Shown: piece by piece, positions 57,883 to 63,286 of the stretch
Layout: every line of letters begins with the position of its first letter
Position numbering within the stretch: the first letter of the stretch is position 1
NCBI GenBank assembly: GCA_002238415.1
Contig: MPMI01000019.1
Coordinates: forward strand, 1 to 64,000
Source of the DNA: Desulfurellaceae bacterium bin18
GTDB taxonomy: Bacteria > Desulfobacterota > Binatia > Bin18
Length of the DNA: 64,000 bases
Direction: 5' to 3'
Program-made: the position numbers and the translations under genes
The notes under the pieces: generated by a model
Database searches by the model: none
What the model saw: only the letters and a program-made list of their open reading frames with translations
What the model was told of the DNA's origin: nothing

Positions 57883-59055
57883 ATGCGCAAAGAGATACTC
57901 ACCGCCCGCTTGGCCGAGGTGAAAGAGAGTGGCTTGTACCGTCGCTTGCGTGCAGTTGAGGGTGCGCAGGACGCGGCTATTGTCCTTGAAGGCCAAGAGG
58001 TGTTGCTGTTTTCTTCCAATAATTACTTGGGCTTGGCCAATCACCCGGCCCTCAAGCTGGCGGCCCAAGAGGCGATTGAGCGGTACGGCTGTGGCAGTGG
58101 CGCTTCGCGTCTGATTTCCGGCTCCATGGCTGTCCATCACGAGTTGGAACATCGCCTTGCGACACTTAAAAAAACAGAAGCTGCTCTTGTTTTTCCGACG
58201 GGTTATCACGCCAATATCGGGGTGCTGTCCGCCCTGATGGGACCGGACGATACGATCTTGAGTGACAGCCTGAACCACGCCAGCATCATTGACGGCTGCC
58301 GCCTGTCACGGGCTGATACTCGGGTCTATCGTCATGCTGACACCGAGCATCTGGGTGAACTGCTGAAAGCGTGCCCAGCGACCGGCCAGTGCCTGATTGT
58401 GACGGACAGCGTGTTCAGCATGGACGGTGACCTGGCCCCACTGGCGGAGATTGTTGCTCTGGCCCGGCAGTATGACGCCTGGGTGATGGTTGATGAGGCC
58501 CACGCGACCGGCGTGTTCGGATCGCACGGTGGCGGCCTGGTTGAAGAACTCGGCCTGACCGAAGAGGTCGATATCCAGATGGGAACCCTGGGGAAGGCAC
58601 TGGGCTGCGTGGGGGCCTTTGTGGCTGGCAGTCACGAGCTGATTGATTGGCTGGTGAATCGGGCGCGGAGTTTCATCTATACCACGGCGATTCCGCCCGC
58701 AGTTGCGGCGTCGGTACTCGCCGCCCTCGACATCGTGGAGCAAGAGCCCGAGCGACGACGGCAGTTGTGGAATAACACCCGGGTGTTGGCGGACGGACTC
58801 CGCTCGCTTGGTTATACGCTGGGCACGACCCACTCGCAGATTCTGCCGGTCATCATCGGCGAGGCATGCGAGACAATGAGCGTGGCCGCTGCTATCCTCC
58901 AGCGTGGCGTCTTTGCCCACGGCATCCGTCCGCCAACCGTTCCGGAAGGCACCTCGCGCATTCGCGTGACTCCCATGGCAACCCACACCCAGGACCAGCT
59001 GTCGCGCACGCTGGACGCTTTTGCCGCGGCTGGCAAGGAGATCGGGATTCGATGA
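57883..59055 (+). CDS. bioF: 8-amino-7-oxononanoate synthase
   Basis: A 390-residue PLP enzyme joining pimeloyl thioester and L-alanine. Signatures: LFSSNNYLGLANHPALK, GSGASRLISGSMAVHHELE, SDSLNHASIIDGCRLS, MVDEAHATGVFG and the PLP-lysine in QMGTLGKALG. First gene of bioFADB; its stop overlaps the bioA start (ATGA). No bioC/bioH in view. Confidence 0.97.
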   Translation: MRKEILTARLAEVKESGLYRRLRAVEGAQDAAIVLEGQEVLLFSSNNYLGLANHPALKLAAQEAIERYGCGSGASRLISGSMAVHHELEHRLATLKKTEAALVFPTGYHANIGVLSALMGPDDTILSDSLNHASIIDGCRLSRADTRVYRHADTEHLGELLKACPATGQCLIVTDSVFSMDGDLAPLAEIVALARQYDAWVMVDEAHATGVFGSHGGGLVEELGLTEEVDIQMGTLGKALGCVGAFVAGSHELIDWLVNRARSFIYTTAIPPAVAASVLAALDIVEQEPERRRQLWNNTRVLADGLRSLGYTLGTTHSQILPVIIGEACETMSVAAAILQRGVFAHGIRPPTVPEGTSRIRVTPMATHTQDQLSRTLDAFAAAGKEIGIR

Positions 59056-60407
59056 GCGCCCCGTCGTATGCAGACCTCAAAGCCTGGGATCATGCCTATG
59101 TGTGGCATCCGTTTACCCAGATGCAGGACTGGTTGCGGGAAGACCCGATTATTATTGCCAGGGGCGAGGGCAATTATGTGATTGATGTTAACGGTAAGCG
59201 CTATCTGGACGGGGCCTCCTCGTTATGGTGCAACGTTCATGGCCATACCCATCCCCGCCTCAACAGGGCCATTACCGAGCAGGTCAACCGGATATCGCAT
59301 TCGACCATGCTCGGGCTGGCCAATATCCCGTCTATCCTGCTGGCGAAGAAACTGGTTGAGTTGGCACCGTCCGGGCTGACCCGCGTGTTCTATTCGGACG
59401 CGGGTGCCACCGCCACGGAAATCGCGCTCAAACTGGCGTTTCAGTACTGGCAGTTACGCGGAGAAGCCCGGCGCACGAAATTTGCCTCATTAGTCGAAGC
59501 CTACCACGGCGATACTCTAGGCGCGGTCAGCGTGGGCTACTCCGAACTCTTTCATCATTTCTATCGACCCCTTTTGGCGGACACCGTCCGACTGACCCCG
59601 CCGCATGTGTTTCGCTTTGTCCGCGGCATGTCGGCCGAGCGGGCGCTGGCCGCGGCCCAGGAAGAAGCCGAACATACCCTCGCCCGGCAGCACGCCGAGC
59701 TGGCAGCCGTGATTATAGAACCCCTCATGCAGGGCGCGGCCGGGATGTGGGCACATCCGGTCGAATACGTGCGCACCCTGCGCCAGCTCACGCGTCAGCA
59801 CGGCATCCTCCTGATCTGTGACGAAGTGGCCACCGGGTTTGGTCGCACCGGGAAAATGTTCGCCTGCGAACATGCCGCTATCAACCCGGACTTGTTCTGT
59901 CTGGCCAAGGGTATTACCGGCGGTTATCTGCCACTCGCGGCCACCCTAGCCACCGAGGAAATTTTTTCCGCCTTTCTCGCACCCTACGAAGAGTTCAAGA
60001 CTTTCTTTCATGGCCATACGTATACCGGTAATCCCGTAGCCTGCGCCGCGGCCCTGGCCAGCCTGGAGGTTTTTGCCGAAGAGCAGGTCCTTGAGCATCT
60101 GCAGTCCAAGATTAGCCTGTTGACCCAACGCCTCCGGACCGATATCGCCCCCCTCTCCCACGTGGCCGACATTCGACAGTGGGGCATGATGGTCGGGGTC
60201 GAATTGATGCGCGACCCGGCCAACAAGATCGCTTATGATCCCGCCGAGAAGATCAGTATTCGGGTCATCCAGGAAGCGCGCAAACATGGCGTGATGATTC
60301 GACCGTTGGGTAGCATCATCATTCTCATGCCGCCGCTCAGCATTACCGAGGACGAATTGTCACTCCTGCTCGATGTCGTCCACACCGCCATTCAGACCGT
60401 CACATGA
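59052..60407 (+). CDS. bioA: adenosylmethionine-8-amino-7-oxononanoate aminotransferase
   Basis: A 451-residue class III aminotransferase making DAPA with SAM as amino donor. Signatures: HAYVWHPFTQMQDW (BioA-specific), DGASSLWCNVHGH, VFYSDAGATATEIALK, CDEVATGFGRTG and the PLP-lysine in FCLAKGITGGYLPLAATL. Start ATG 59052 overlaps bioF; the longer upstream frame is a bioF shadow. It overlaps bioD by four bases. Confidence 0.97.
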   Translation: MSAPSYADLKAWDHAYVWHPFTQMQDWLREDPIIIARGEGNYVIDVNGKRYLDGASSLWCNVHGHTHPRLNRAITEQVNRISHSTMLGLANIPSILLAKKLVELAPSGLTRVFYSDAGATATEIALKLAFQYWQLRGEARRTKFASLVEAYHGDTLGAVSVGYSELFHHFYRPLLADTVRLTPPHVFRFVRGMSAERALAAAQEEAEHTLARQHAELAAVIIEPLMQGAAGMWAHPVEYVRTLRQLTRQHGILLICDEVATGFGRTGKMFACEHAAINPDLFCLAKGITGGYLPLAATLATEEIFSAFLAPYEEFKTFFHGHTYTGNPVACAAALASLEVFAEEQVLEHLQSKISLLTQRLRTDIAPLSHVADIRQWGMMVGVELMRDPANKIAYDPAEKISIRVIQEARKHGVMIRPLGSIIILMPPLSITEDELSLLLDVVHTAIQTVT

Positions 60408-61111
60408 CCAGCCTGTTTATCACCGGTACGGATACCGGCATCGGCAAGACCCTGGTCGGCTGTGGCATTGCCGCGGCCCTGACCGCCCAAGGCAAGCGGG
60501 TGGGCGTGCTCAAACCGGCAGAAACGGGCTGCGACAGACGAGACGGGGCCTTATACCCGGACGACGCCTTGCGTCTGGCCGACTATGCCCGGAGCAGCCT
60601 ACCGCTTGAGACCGTATGCCCCTACCGTTTTTCCCCGCCGGTCGCCCCGAGCGTCGCGGCCGAGCAGGCCGGCGTGACCATTCAGCCGGAGCGGATTATC
60701 GAGATGTTTCATACGATTGCCGACCAACACGATGTGACGCTGGTAGAGGGCGCCGGCGGCTTGCTGGTGCCGCTCGTGGGCCGCTATTCATTTGCCGACC
60801 TAGCTCGTGATCTCGGCATTCCGATTCTCGTCGTGGTCGGCTCAAAGCTCGGCGCGTTGAATCATACCCTGCTGACGCTGCACTGCATTGCGGCTCGCGC
60901 GTTACCCCTGGCCGGCTATACCCTCAACCATCCGACCCCGGCCACGGATGACGCCATCACAACCAACGCAACGACTTTAGCTAACCTGACCGATGTGCCG
61001 TGCCGGGGCATTATTCCCCATCTTTCGTTGAGCGAGGATATCGACCGGGATCGTGTGATGCTGAGCGAGATGTTCGCCACAGCAGTTGATCTTCCCGGAC
61101 TGCTCGGATAG
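60404..61111 (+). CDS. bioD: dethiobiotin synthetase
   Basis: A 235-residue ATP-dependent carboxylating enzyme forming the ureido ring of dethiobiotin. P-loop: TGTDTGIGKTLVGCGIA. Substrate Lys: LKPAETGC. VEGAGGLLVPL is the family switch motif. It overlaps bioA and precedes bioB by 44 bases. Confidence 0.96.
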   Translation: MTSLFITGTDTGIGKTLVGCGIAAALTAQGKRVGVLKPAETGCDRRDGALYPDDALRLADYARSSLPLETVCPYRFSPPVAPSVAAEQAGVTIQPERIIEMFHTIADQHDVTLVEGAGGLLVPLVGRYSFADLARDLGIPILVVVGSKLGALNHTLLTLHCIAARALPLAGYTLNHPTPATDDAITTNATTLANLTDVPCRGIIPHLSLSEDIDRDRVMLSEMFATAVDLPGLLG

Positions 61112-61155
61112 AGCAGAGTCCTGCTCAGCACGTTTTGACGGAAAGGGAAAACAGT

Positions 61156-62166
61156 ATGAATAGCTTCTCGCACTTCGCGACCCAATCACTAGCTGGCGAG
61201 TTACTGTCGCGTGAAGACGCCTTCGCTGTTTTACGCACATCCGACGAGGAGTTATCCGACCTGCTGCATGCGGCCTTCACGGTGCGAGAAAAGTTCTTCG
61301 GGCGCAAGGTCAAGATTTGTGTCTTACAAAATGCTCGCAGCGGCTTATGCCCGGAAGATTGCAATTACTGTTCGCAGTCCTCCATCTCCAAAGCTCCGAT
61401 TGACAAATACCGCCTGCTCTCAACGGACGAACTGCTTGCCGGAGCACGCAAGGCGGCCCAGGCAGGCGCCCGTCGCTATTGCATGGTTGCTAGCGGACGT
61501 GGCCCCAGCGAGCGCGATGTTGCTCATCTGACCGCGGCGACACGCCAGATCAAAGCCGAGTTTCCCGGCCTGGAGATTTGTGTCTCTCTGGGGCTCATGA
61601 GTGAACCCCAGGCCCGCGCACTCAAAGACTCCGGCGTCGGCTGGGTCAACCACAACCTCAACACCAGCCGTGAGTTCTACGCGGAGATCTGCTCAACGCA
61701 TACCTATGAGGATCGGGTTGAGACCGTCAAAAACGTCAAGCGAGCCGGGTTATCCACGTGTAGCGGCGGTATTATCGGCATGGGTGAAAAAGACGAGGAC
61801 ATCGTTGAGTTAGCCTACGCCGTCCGGGAGCTGGGCATTGACTCCGTGCCGGTTAATTTCCTGTATCCCATTGACGGCACGCCCCTCGGTTCGCGTAAGG
61901 ATTTCAATCCCGTTCGCGGTCTCAAGGCGCTCTGTCTGATGCGCTTCCTGAATCCGCGTAGCGAAATCCGTATGGCTGCGGGACGCGAACTCTATCTCGG
62001 CCAATGGTCGGGCTTAGCCTTCTATCCAGCGAACTCGATTTTTGTTGAAGGCTATCTCACCACTCCGGGCCAGCAGGCCCAGGACGCCCATCAACTCGTT
62101 GAAGCCGCCGGGTTTGAGGTAGAGCAAGAAGACGTGCCGAGCGAAGAAGCGCGCAGTGGAGTATAG
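61156..62166 (+). CDS. bioB: biotin synthase
   Basis: A 336-residue radical-SAM enzyme inserting sulfur into dethiobiotin. The C-x3-C-x2-C cluster is in SGLCPEDCNYCSQS. Downstream family motifs include NHNLNTSREFY, CSGGIIGMGE, NFLYPIDGTPL and the 2Fe-2S region near AAGRELYLG. ATG 61156 follows GAAAGGGAAAAC. Last gene of the bioFADB operon. Confidence 0.97.
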   Translation: MNSFSHFATQSLAGELLSREDAFAVLRTSDEELSDLLHAAFTVREKFFGRKVKICVLQNARSGLCPEDCNYCSQSSISKAPIDKYRLLSTDELLAGARKAAQAGARRYCMVASGRGPSERDVAHLTAATRQIKAEFPGLEICVSLGLMSEPQARALKDSGVGWVNHNLNTSREFYAEICSTHTYEDRVETVKNVKRAGLSTCSGGIIGMGEKDEDIVELAYAVRELGIDSVPVNFLYPIDGTPLGSRKDFNPVRGLKALCLMRFLNPRSEIRMAAGRELYLGQWSGLAFYPANSIFVEGYLTTPGQQAQDAHQLVEAAGFEVEQEDVPSEEARSGV

Positions 62167-62263
62167 GCTCTTCCTCTGCATCTCCTCCCCTCTTCCATCC
62201 CACGTCCAGGAACTTGAGCAGTCTCGGCATAGCTGGTAGGCGTGCCAGGGAGGGGGATATCCT

Positions 62264-63286
62264 ATGCGTACGTCTGTGTATTGGCTCGTCACTGCCTGTC
62301 TGGTGCTCTTGAGCGTTCCGACGCAAGCCGAAGAAAAGAAGCCGGCTATTCGCTTTGGCCTGCAAGTCGCGCAACAGCAAACCACGGTCGAAGAACTCAA
62401 GGACGTGTGGCAGGAAGCCGAGGCCCTGGGTTTCGATACCTTGTGGGTGAACGATCACCTGCTGCCCAGCGTAGGTCCGTCCGACGGGGCCATGCTTGAG
62501 TCCTGGACCTTGCTCGGGGCAATGGCGGCCTCCACCTCAAAAATCCAGATTGGCTGTATGGTGACGAGCAATACCTTTCGCCATCCGTCCATCCTGGCAA
62601 AAATGGCGACCACGGTGGATCATCTGAGCAACGGTCGGCTTATTTTTGGTATTGGCTCAGGCTGGTTCAAACGTGAGCACGAAGCGTACGGGGTCGAGTT
62701 CTCTACGATGAAAGGCCGCGCCCGGCGGCTGGATGAAGCGCTGCAAGTGATCACCAAGCTCTGGCAAGCCAACCCGACCGCGTCGCATACGGGCAAATAT
62801 TACTCGCTGGTGGACGCACCATTTGTCCCGAAGCCGGTGCAGCAACCAATGCCACCGATTATGATTGGTGGGGTCGGTGAAAAGTTGACCCTACCGATTG
62901 TCGCCCGCTATGCCCAGATGTGGAACGTGCCGATTCTTTCGCCCAGTCAGTTTGCCAAAAAGAACCAAGTATTGGAGCAATACTGCGCGGATATCAACCG
63001 AGACTGTAGCGAGATTGAACGCTCCTATCTGACTCCGATGTACCTCAATCCGAGCCCCGAAGCGCTGCAACGGGTGCTGCAACGGGCGATGACCATGCGC
63101 GGTCTGACTGAGTCGGAAGCACGCCGGACGATTCTCGCCGGTACGCCGGCTGAAATCCGCACGCAACTCCAGGCGTATATCGATATTGGCGTCACCCACT
63201 TCATTATTAATCTGCGGCGTCCGGGCCTGTACGATCGAGAGGCCGTGCGTGTCTTTGCCACGGAGGTCATGCCGGCCCTGCGCTAG
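62264..63286 (+). CDS. LLM/F420-type oxidoreductase with an N-terminal signal peptide
   Basis: A 340-residue luciferase-like protein. Residues 1-23 form a Sec-type signal peptide ending at TQAEE (RTSVYWLVTACLVLLSVPTQA). The barrel follows: FDTLWVNDHLLPSVG, SNGRLIFGIGSGWFKREHEAYG and PVQQPMPPIMIGGVGEKL, then QLQAYIDIGVTHFIINLRRP. The GSGWF motif is typical of F420 users. Export of a flavin/deazaflavin enzyme is unusual because such cofactors are cytoplasmic. A Cys in the signal (TACLVLL) is not in lipobox position. GGAGGGGGATATCCT precedes the ATG. Confidence 0.87.
   Translation: MRTSVYWLVTACLVLLSVPTQAEEKKPAIRFGLQVAQQQTTVEELKDVWQEAEALGFDTLWVNDHLLPSVGPSDGAMLESWTLLGAMAASTSKIQIGCMVTSNTFRHPSILAKMATTVDHLSNGRLIFGIGSGWFKREHEAYGVEFSTMKGRARRLDEALQVITKLWQANPTASHTGKYYSLVDAPFVPKPVQQPMPPIMIGGVGEKLTLPIVARYAQMWNVPILSPSQFAKKNQVLEQYCADINRDCSEIERSYLTPMYLNPSPEALQRVLQRAMTMRGLTESEARRTILAGTPAEIRTQLQAYIDIGVTHFIINLRRPGLYDREAVRVFATEVMPALR

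What the first reader, a model, noticed from the sequence alone, without database searches (positions are those of the whole stretch)
62264..63286. Luciferase-like F420-type enzyme with a Sec signal peptide
Most LLM proteins are cytoplasmic since their reduced cofactor is. Here a clear hydrophobic signal and TQA-EE cleavage site precede an otherwise complete barrel. Either the cofactor is loaded outside, or the protein binds small molecules without redox chemistry.
Basis: partly seen in the sequence, partly recalled or inferred. Interest (0 to 1): 0.55.

Follow-up and report, generated by a model that had tools for sequence, protein, structure and literature searches.

The report
Exported luciferase-like F420-family enzyme
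An enzyme of a family that normally works inside the cell carries a conserved export signal and a matching cysteine pair in a group of uncultured bacteria, which suggests that these bacteria may use the rare redox cofactor F420 outside the cytoplasm.

Summary
ORF 62264-63286 encodes a complete luciferase-like barrel (TIGR03560/Rv1855c subfamily, above cut-off) behind a Sec-type signal peptide, MRTSVYWLVTACLVLLSVPTQA|EE, with a strong ribosome site and no start codon at the barrel. The host is a Candidatus Binatia bacterium with F420 biosynthesis genes. The signal is conserved in all 6 same-genus orthologues and across a clade spanning several families. Of 150 luciferase-family genes scored in this genome, three have convincing export signals: this one (Sec) and two Tat paralogues. 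The Sec clade is monophyletic (97/88) and sister to a Tat-exported clade. All 29 Sec-type homologues carry a cysteine pair C241-x4-R-x(1,2)-C248; 0 of 20 Tat and 4 of 126 signal-less homologues do, as expected of folding in an oxidising compartment, although this is one evolutionary event. Pocket residues are kept. The same genomes encode a Ddn-type F420H2 reductase with a signal-like N-terminus, so an extracytoplasmic F420 system is plausible. Tat-exported F420 luciferase-family enzymes are known (Rv0132c); a Sec-exported, cysteine-marked clade is a new variant as far as my searches show. Cofactor, disulfide, substrate and actual export are not demonstrated.

The parts
62247..62256 (+). Shine-Dalgarno-like run AGGGAGGGGG before the ATG
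   Evidence: sequence; same or similar runs before the start in orthologues
62264..63286 (+). ORF of the exported luciferase-like protein (340 aa plus stop)
62264..62329 (+). Sec-type signal peptide, residues 1-22, cut predicted at TQA|EE
   Evidence: sequence; heuristic score highest of 150; conserved in orthologues
62285..62317 (+). hydrophobic core LVTACLVLLSV, mean Kyte-Doolittle 2.78
62330..63283 (+). mature luciferase-like barrel, residues 23-340
   Evidence: AlphaFold model pLDDT 94.9; fold matches
62453..62458 (+). D64-H65, invariant pocket residues
   Evidence: alignments A1-A3; equivalence with Asp39-His40 of FGD1 is recalled
62984..62986 (+). C241, first cysteine of the candidate disulfide; also present in most signal-less homologues
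63005..63007 (+). C248, second cysteine, nearly confined to the Sec clade

Best explanation
This is a Sec-exported, probably periplasmic, F420-type member of the luciferase-like family (Rv1855c subfamily) in Candidatus Binatia. It crosses the membrane unfolded, is cut after TQA, folds outside into a complete barrel, probably with a C241-C248 disulfide, and takes up its cofactor there (most likely F420) to carry out hydride transfer on an extracytoplasmic substrate, more likely as a dehydrogenase than as a reductase. SHOWN by sequence: the ORF, the signal peptide and its conservation, the complete barrel, the kept pocket residues, the clade-specific cysteine pair, the Tat-exported sister clade, and F420 biosynthesis genes. 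INFERRED: that export happens, that the disulfide forms, which cofactor is bound, how it gets outside, the direction of the reaction and the substrate.
For: ORF, ribosome-site-like run and signal. Conservation: 28 distinct Sec-type homologues in the set, plus L300. Monophyly of the 23 Sec rows (bootstrap 97, SH-aLRT 88) and a Tat-signal sister clade. Pair motif 29 of 29 Sec, 0 of 20 Tat, 4 of 126 without signal. Disulfide machinery: VKOR and DSBA matches in one 479-aa ORF. TatC present. F420 genes: cofD over cut-off in 55 of 58 and cofH in 54 of 58 genomes; own cofG/H/D cluster on C67. Fold and pocket. Purifying selection. A second, unrelated F420-associated family, Ddn-type PF04075, has a signal-like N-terminus in 15 of 16 genomes of the family.
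Against: No export, cofactor or disulfide has been measured. The signal was called by my own heuristic, not SignalP. The cysteine pair and the signal change together only once or twice on the tree (2 independent pairs, p 0.5), so the association is one event, not a statistical replicate; 4 signal-less homologues also carry the motif (L104, L246, L284, L301). L040 and L044 have RR at positions 2-3 or 3-4 and were put in the Sec class by hand. The fold does not separate F420 from FMN enzymes. No route for F420 or its reduction outside was found. The gene neighbourhood gives no pathway (bioB upstream in 9 of 13 relatives, other genes elsewhere).
Confidence: 0.6

Rival explanations
1. Exported, but uses FMN or another flavin rather than F420, as a periplasmic flavin-dependent luciferase-like oxidoreductase.
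For: Solved FMN enzymes of the family fit the model nearly as well as F420 enzymes (8t0w Z 32.8, and 3rao, cofactor not read, 34.4, against 1rhc 34.2). Flavins are known in the periplasm of other bacteria (recalled).
Against: Over the cut-off of an F420 subfamily model. The clade sits in genomes with F420 biosynthesis. A second F420-associated family looks exported in the same genomes.
Confidence: 0.18
2. Exported protein that has lost redox chemistry and only binds small molecules.
For: Seven of 45 otherwise conserved columns are relaxed in the Sec clade (Y105, L126, E138, P191, A214, A332, V335). Sec export removes the simple route for cofactor preloading.
Against: 38 of 45 conserved columns kept, including the likely pocket residues; high-confidence barrel; dN/dS 0.098.
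Confidence: 0.1
3. The N-terminus is an uncleaved membrane anchor; the barrel is tethered and faces outward.
For: The core is strongly hydrophobic (mean 2.78). A Ddn-type homologue in G022 (L335) has an anchor-like N-terminus.
Against: Short core and a small-x-small cut site (AxA type in most Sec members); this changes tethering, not the side of the membrane.
Confidence: 0.08
4. Cytoplasmic enzyme; the signal is an annotation artefact and translation starts inside.
For: Many signal-less homologues have an ATG about 6-10 residues before the barrel motif.
Against: No ATG before the barrel; in-frame GTG/TTG codons fall within the signal; strong ribosome-site-like run before the ATG; a hydrophobic segment is kept across a clade down to about 43% identity.
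Confidence: 0.02

Closest known systems
Rv0132c / fHMAD of Mycobacterium tuberculosis (TIGR04465), Tat-exported F420-dependent hydroxymycolic acid dehydrogenase (PMC3478262 abstract and Discussion read; PMC3859598 abstract read)
   Same: Luciferase-like barrel with an export signal; fold match Z 32.0 (9fpp, 9fp4).
   Different: Tat plus lipobox signal and cofactor carried out in complex; here a Sec-type signal without a Tat motif and a cysteine pair. TIGR04465 score 73.3 against a cut-off of 470.
TIGR03560 F420_Rv1855c subfamily
   Same: Over the curated cut-off (272.5 vs 231.4 bits).
   Different: Signal-less homologues start at the barrel; this clade has a signal and C248.
Tat-signal luciferase-like paralogues of the same genome (L082 at C15:86965, L084 at C81:178064)
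   Same: Same family; L082 belongs to the sister clade of the Sec clade.
   Different: SRRTFLK / SRRKFLK Tat signals; no cysteine pair.
Ddn-type F420H2-dependent quinone reductases (PF04075; PMC3567243 passages read)
   Same: F420-associated, and in these genomes also with a signal-like N-terminus.
   Different: A different protein family; a possible partner, not a relative.

Membership tests
Luciferase-like monooxygenase family (PF00296) | profile match over the gathering score | tested here: met
   188 bits against 27.9
Luciferase-like monooxygenase family (PF00296) | complete TIM-type barrel | tested here: met
   mean pLDDT 94.9; 303 residues aligned to 3rao at Z 34.4, rmsd 2.4
TIGR03560 F420_Rv1855c | score over the curated cut-off | tested here: met
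   272.5 against 231.4
TIGR03560 F420_Rv1855c | binds and uses F420 | not testable with these tools
   F420 genes are present in the genome, binding not measured
TIGR04465 Rv0132c-type exported dehydrogenase | score over the curated cut-off | tested here: not met
   73.3 against 470
TIGR04465 Rv0132c-type exported dehydrogenase | twin-arginine signal | tested here: not met
   MRTSVYWLVTACL has no RR
Sec signal peptide, signal peptidase I type | positive n-region, hydrophobic core, small residues at -3 and -1 | tested here: met
   R2; core mean 2.78; T-Q-A before the cut. Heuristic, not SignalP
Sec signal peptide, signal peptidase I type | cleavage and export in the cell | not testable with these tools
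   needs fractionation or N-terminal sequencing
Lipoprotein signal | conserved lipobox cysteine at +1 | tested here: not met
   C12 lies inside the hydrophobic core and is not conserved in orthologues
Extracytoplasmic disulfide protein | cysteine pair associated with exported members | tested here: met
   29 of 29 Sec, 0 of 20 Tat, 4 of 126 others; four exceptions, and only one or two events on the tree
Extracytoplasmic disulfide protein | bonded cysteines in the protein | not tested
   no coordinates or mass data

The most novel reading that the evidence does not exclude
Candidatus Binatia run an F420 redox system outside the cytoplasm: Tat- and Sec-exported luciferase-like enzymes oxidise substrates with F420, and an exported Ddn-type F420H2:quinone reductase (G000:C51:86875-87408) passes the electrons to membrane quinone. 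This would make F420 a diffusible periplasmic electron carrier rather than a cytoplasmic or tightly bound cofactor.
Probability: 0.22. Interest if true: 0.85.

Novelty: new variant of a known kind. Interest (0 to 1): 0.6.

Why it matters
F420 is treated as a cytoplasmic cofactor; the one extracytoplasmic luciferase-family case that my searches found is Tat-exported Rv0132c, which carries its F420 out in complex. A Sec-exported clade should not be able to do that, because Sec substrates cross unfolded (stated in PMC3478262, Discussion). If the enzyme is active with F420, the cofactor must be free or delivered outside. That makes an open question, whether a bacterium keeps an extracytoplasmic F420 pool, directly testable with one protein. 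The sister pair of Tat and Sec clades is also a natural experiment on how a cofactor enzyme changes export route, with a cysteine gained on the Sec side.

Tried and rejected
Wrong start codon: rejected, no ATG before the barrel, and the signal is conserved. Lipoprotein: C12 not conserved and inside the core. Tat signal in the window protein: no RR. Operon with biotin synthesis as a clue to function: bioB (with bioF, bioA, bioD where the contig reaches) lies upstream in all 6 same-genus genomes, G007, G010 (with a DUF1326 gene between) and G012, that is 9 of the 13 family relatives whose orthologue neighbourhood I read, but not in G008, G009, G011, G015 or in the more distant Sec members, where DUF1326, CoA-transferase, 2OG oxygenase, FeS or DJ-1 genes or nothing known lie next to it, so no pathway was inferred. 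Promoter and terminator scan: nothing clearly above chance that bears on it. First quick tree (103 rows): it split the Sec rows in two. Holding them together gave a better likelihood (by 30.6, p-AU 0.85; Sec plus Tat sister by 30.8), and the careful 58-row tree has them as one clade. For the trees I dropped 11 near-copies or unreadable rows and most of the distant named loci, and in the second kept 58 of the 103 rows by choice. In the counts I dropped three duplicates (L085, L087, L095), moved L040 and L044 from Tat to Sec and L058 and L125 to no signal by eye, and later counted L259 and L291 as Tat after reading their starts; L289 has no readable N-terminus and stays among the 126. Five Tat homologues (L257, L272, L273, L276, L277) plus L259 and L289 show another Cys seven residues before the C241 position (C-x2-F-D-x2-C); unexplained. 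F420 against FMN by fold: inconclusive. Literature: searches showed no Sec-exported luciferase-family enzyme; I read listings, abstracts, passages or single sections only, so this does not exclude one.

Full report
What is there. The ORF at 62264-63286 (+) is as described: 340 residues from an ATG preceded by AGGGAGGGGG, with an N-terminus MRTSVYWLVTACLVLLSVPTQA|EEKK and then a luciferase-like barrel. Pfam Bac_luciferase covers residues 34-276 at 3.6e-55; the best curated model is TIGR03560 F420_Rv1855c, 272.5 bits against a cut-off of 231.4. The AlphaFold model of the mature part has mean pLDDT 94.9 and fits solved luciferase-family structures over nearly its whole length (3rao Z 34.4; F420 enzymes 8qpl 34.2 and 1rhc 34.2; Rv0132c 9fpp 32.0; FMN enzyme 8t0w 32.8).

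Host. The best titled match is a contig of a Candidatus Binatia bacterium, JAJDTY010000070.1 (94% identity). The genome has cofD, cofH and a cofG-like gene side by side on contig C67; cofD is over cut-off in 55 of 58 genomes and cofH in 54 of 58. TatC is present.

Is the signal real? Orthologues in 6 of 6 same-genus genomes (92-98% identity) and in the family (64-68%) carry it. There is no ATG between residue 1 and the barrel, and the GTG/TTG codons before the barrel sit inside the signal. I scored the 150 luciferase-family ORFs listed for this genome (191 candidates were seen, 150 scored): 11 were flagged, 8 I rejected by eye, and three remain: the window protein with the highest score, and two textbook Tat signals, MRDISRRKFLKEAGTVVAGVAGLQA (L084) and MAKEQISRRTFLKNTGAAVTAAALAG (L082).

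Homologues. In 173 homologous ORFs, from unnamed relatives and from 80 titled public loci (five more), I scored N-termini and the C241 region. After removing three duplicates and correcting calls by eye (listed under Tried and rejected), 29 have a Sec-type signal, 20 a Tat signal and 126 none. The motif C-x4-R-x(1,2)-C is in 29 of 29 Sec, 0 of 20 Tat and 4 of 126 others (L104, L246, L284, L301). The first cysteine is common to all groups (28 of 28 Sec, 18 of 18 Tat, 92 of 124 none), so the Sec clade most likely gained the second. A paired cysteine is what one expects of a protein that folds in an oxidising compartment, and the genome encodes a VKOR-DsbA fusion-like ORF. The caveat is that on the tree this is one event: only two independent pairs exist and the sign test cannot be significant.

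Tree. A careful 58-row tree puts the 23 Sec rows in one clade (97/88) and next to a nine-row Tat-type clade (100/100); the two together have 93/87. One row of that clade, L259, was labelled signal-less but has a GTG-start Tat signal. A second Tat clade lies elsewhere in the family. So export arose inside a mostly signal-less family, and two sister clades use different routes. In a sample of 297 genomes of the phylum, 4 matched at 1e-100, all in the class Binatia (seven candidates or fewer were scored per genome). In the class 66 of 148 genomes have a homologue at 1e-70, signal-bearing or not.

Function. Of 45 columns at least 90% conserved in the non-Sec homologues, 38 are kept in the Sec clade, including D64, H65, G97, R106, P108, G124, R125, G129, G131, G202 and G205. 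The equivalence of D64-H65 to Asp39-His40 of FGD1 is recalled. dN/dS across seven same-genus genes is 0.098 overall and 0.24 in the signal. This argues for a working enzyme. A 2021 review notes that the Tat-exported dehydrogenase fHMAD can work outside because it does not need a pool of reduced F420 (PMC8498797, passage read); by the same logic a dehydrogenase role is likelier here. Sec substrates cross unfolded (PMC3478262, Discussion), so the cofactor would have to be taken up outside.

A second F420-associated family with an export-like N-terminus. Of three PF04075 (Ddn-type F420H2 reductase) matches in this genome, one (L306, TIGR00026 53.2 bits against 46.35) has a hydrophobic N-terminus ending in SSHA|QES. 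It is kept in 15 of the 16 genomes of the family (G005 lacks a close match): a 10-residue core with mean 2.1-3.2 in all 15 and an A-Q/E/D-x site in 14 of 15 by pattern; two f8 genomes have it too. Of the eight weaker matches read (L334-L341) none has the full signal and one, L335, looks anchored. Mycobacterial Ddn has a hydrophobic amphipathic N-terminus for membrane association (PMC3567243, passages), so an anchor is possible; a positively charged start followed by a hydrophobic stretch would still put the domain outside (recalled positive-inside rule). Sec luciferase-like genes also occur in genomes without this protein (G020, G021), so the two are not strictly coupled.

Verdict. Observation confirmed. 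Best reading: a Sec-exported F420-type luciferase-like enzyme, a new variant of a known kind (Tat-exported relatives are known). The bolder reading, an extracytoplasmic F420 redox system in Binatia, is not excluded and is testable.

Noticed in passing
Expansions are described in SAR202 (PMC5395668, passages); none found for Binatia in my searches.
   Followed up: partly
L082 (G000:C15:86965-87651) and L084 (G000:C81:178064-178765): Two luciferase-like paralogues with textbook Tat signals SRRTFLK and SRRKFLK in the same genome.
   Followed up: yes
L306 (G000:C51:86875-87408, minus): Ddn-type PF04075 protein with a signal-like N-terminus conserved in 15 of 16 genomes of the family and in two f8 genomes.
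   Followed up: partly
L335 (G022): PF04075 homologue with an anchor-like N-terminus but no cut site.
   Followed up: no
L257, L259, L272, L273, L276, L277, L289: Tat-clade homologues carry another cysteine seven residues before the C241 position (C-x2-F-D-x2-C); meaning unknown.
   Followed up: no
L246 and L301 (family f13), L284, L104: Signal-less homologues with the same cysteine-pair motif, exceptions to the rule.
   Followed up: partly
L068, L070, L071: A DUF1326 gene lies directly upstream of the exported luciferase-like gene in three genomes of the family.
   Followed up: partly
window 57883-62166: bioF-bioA-bioD-bioB cluster directly upstream; bioB is next to or near this gene in 9 of 13 family relatives read.
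   Followed up: yes
L308 (G000:C45:9810-10898, minus): 479-aa ORF with both VKOR and DSBA matches, a likely VKOR-DsbA fusion.
   Followed up: no
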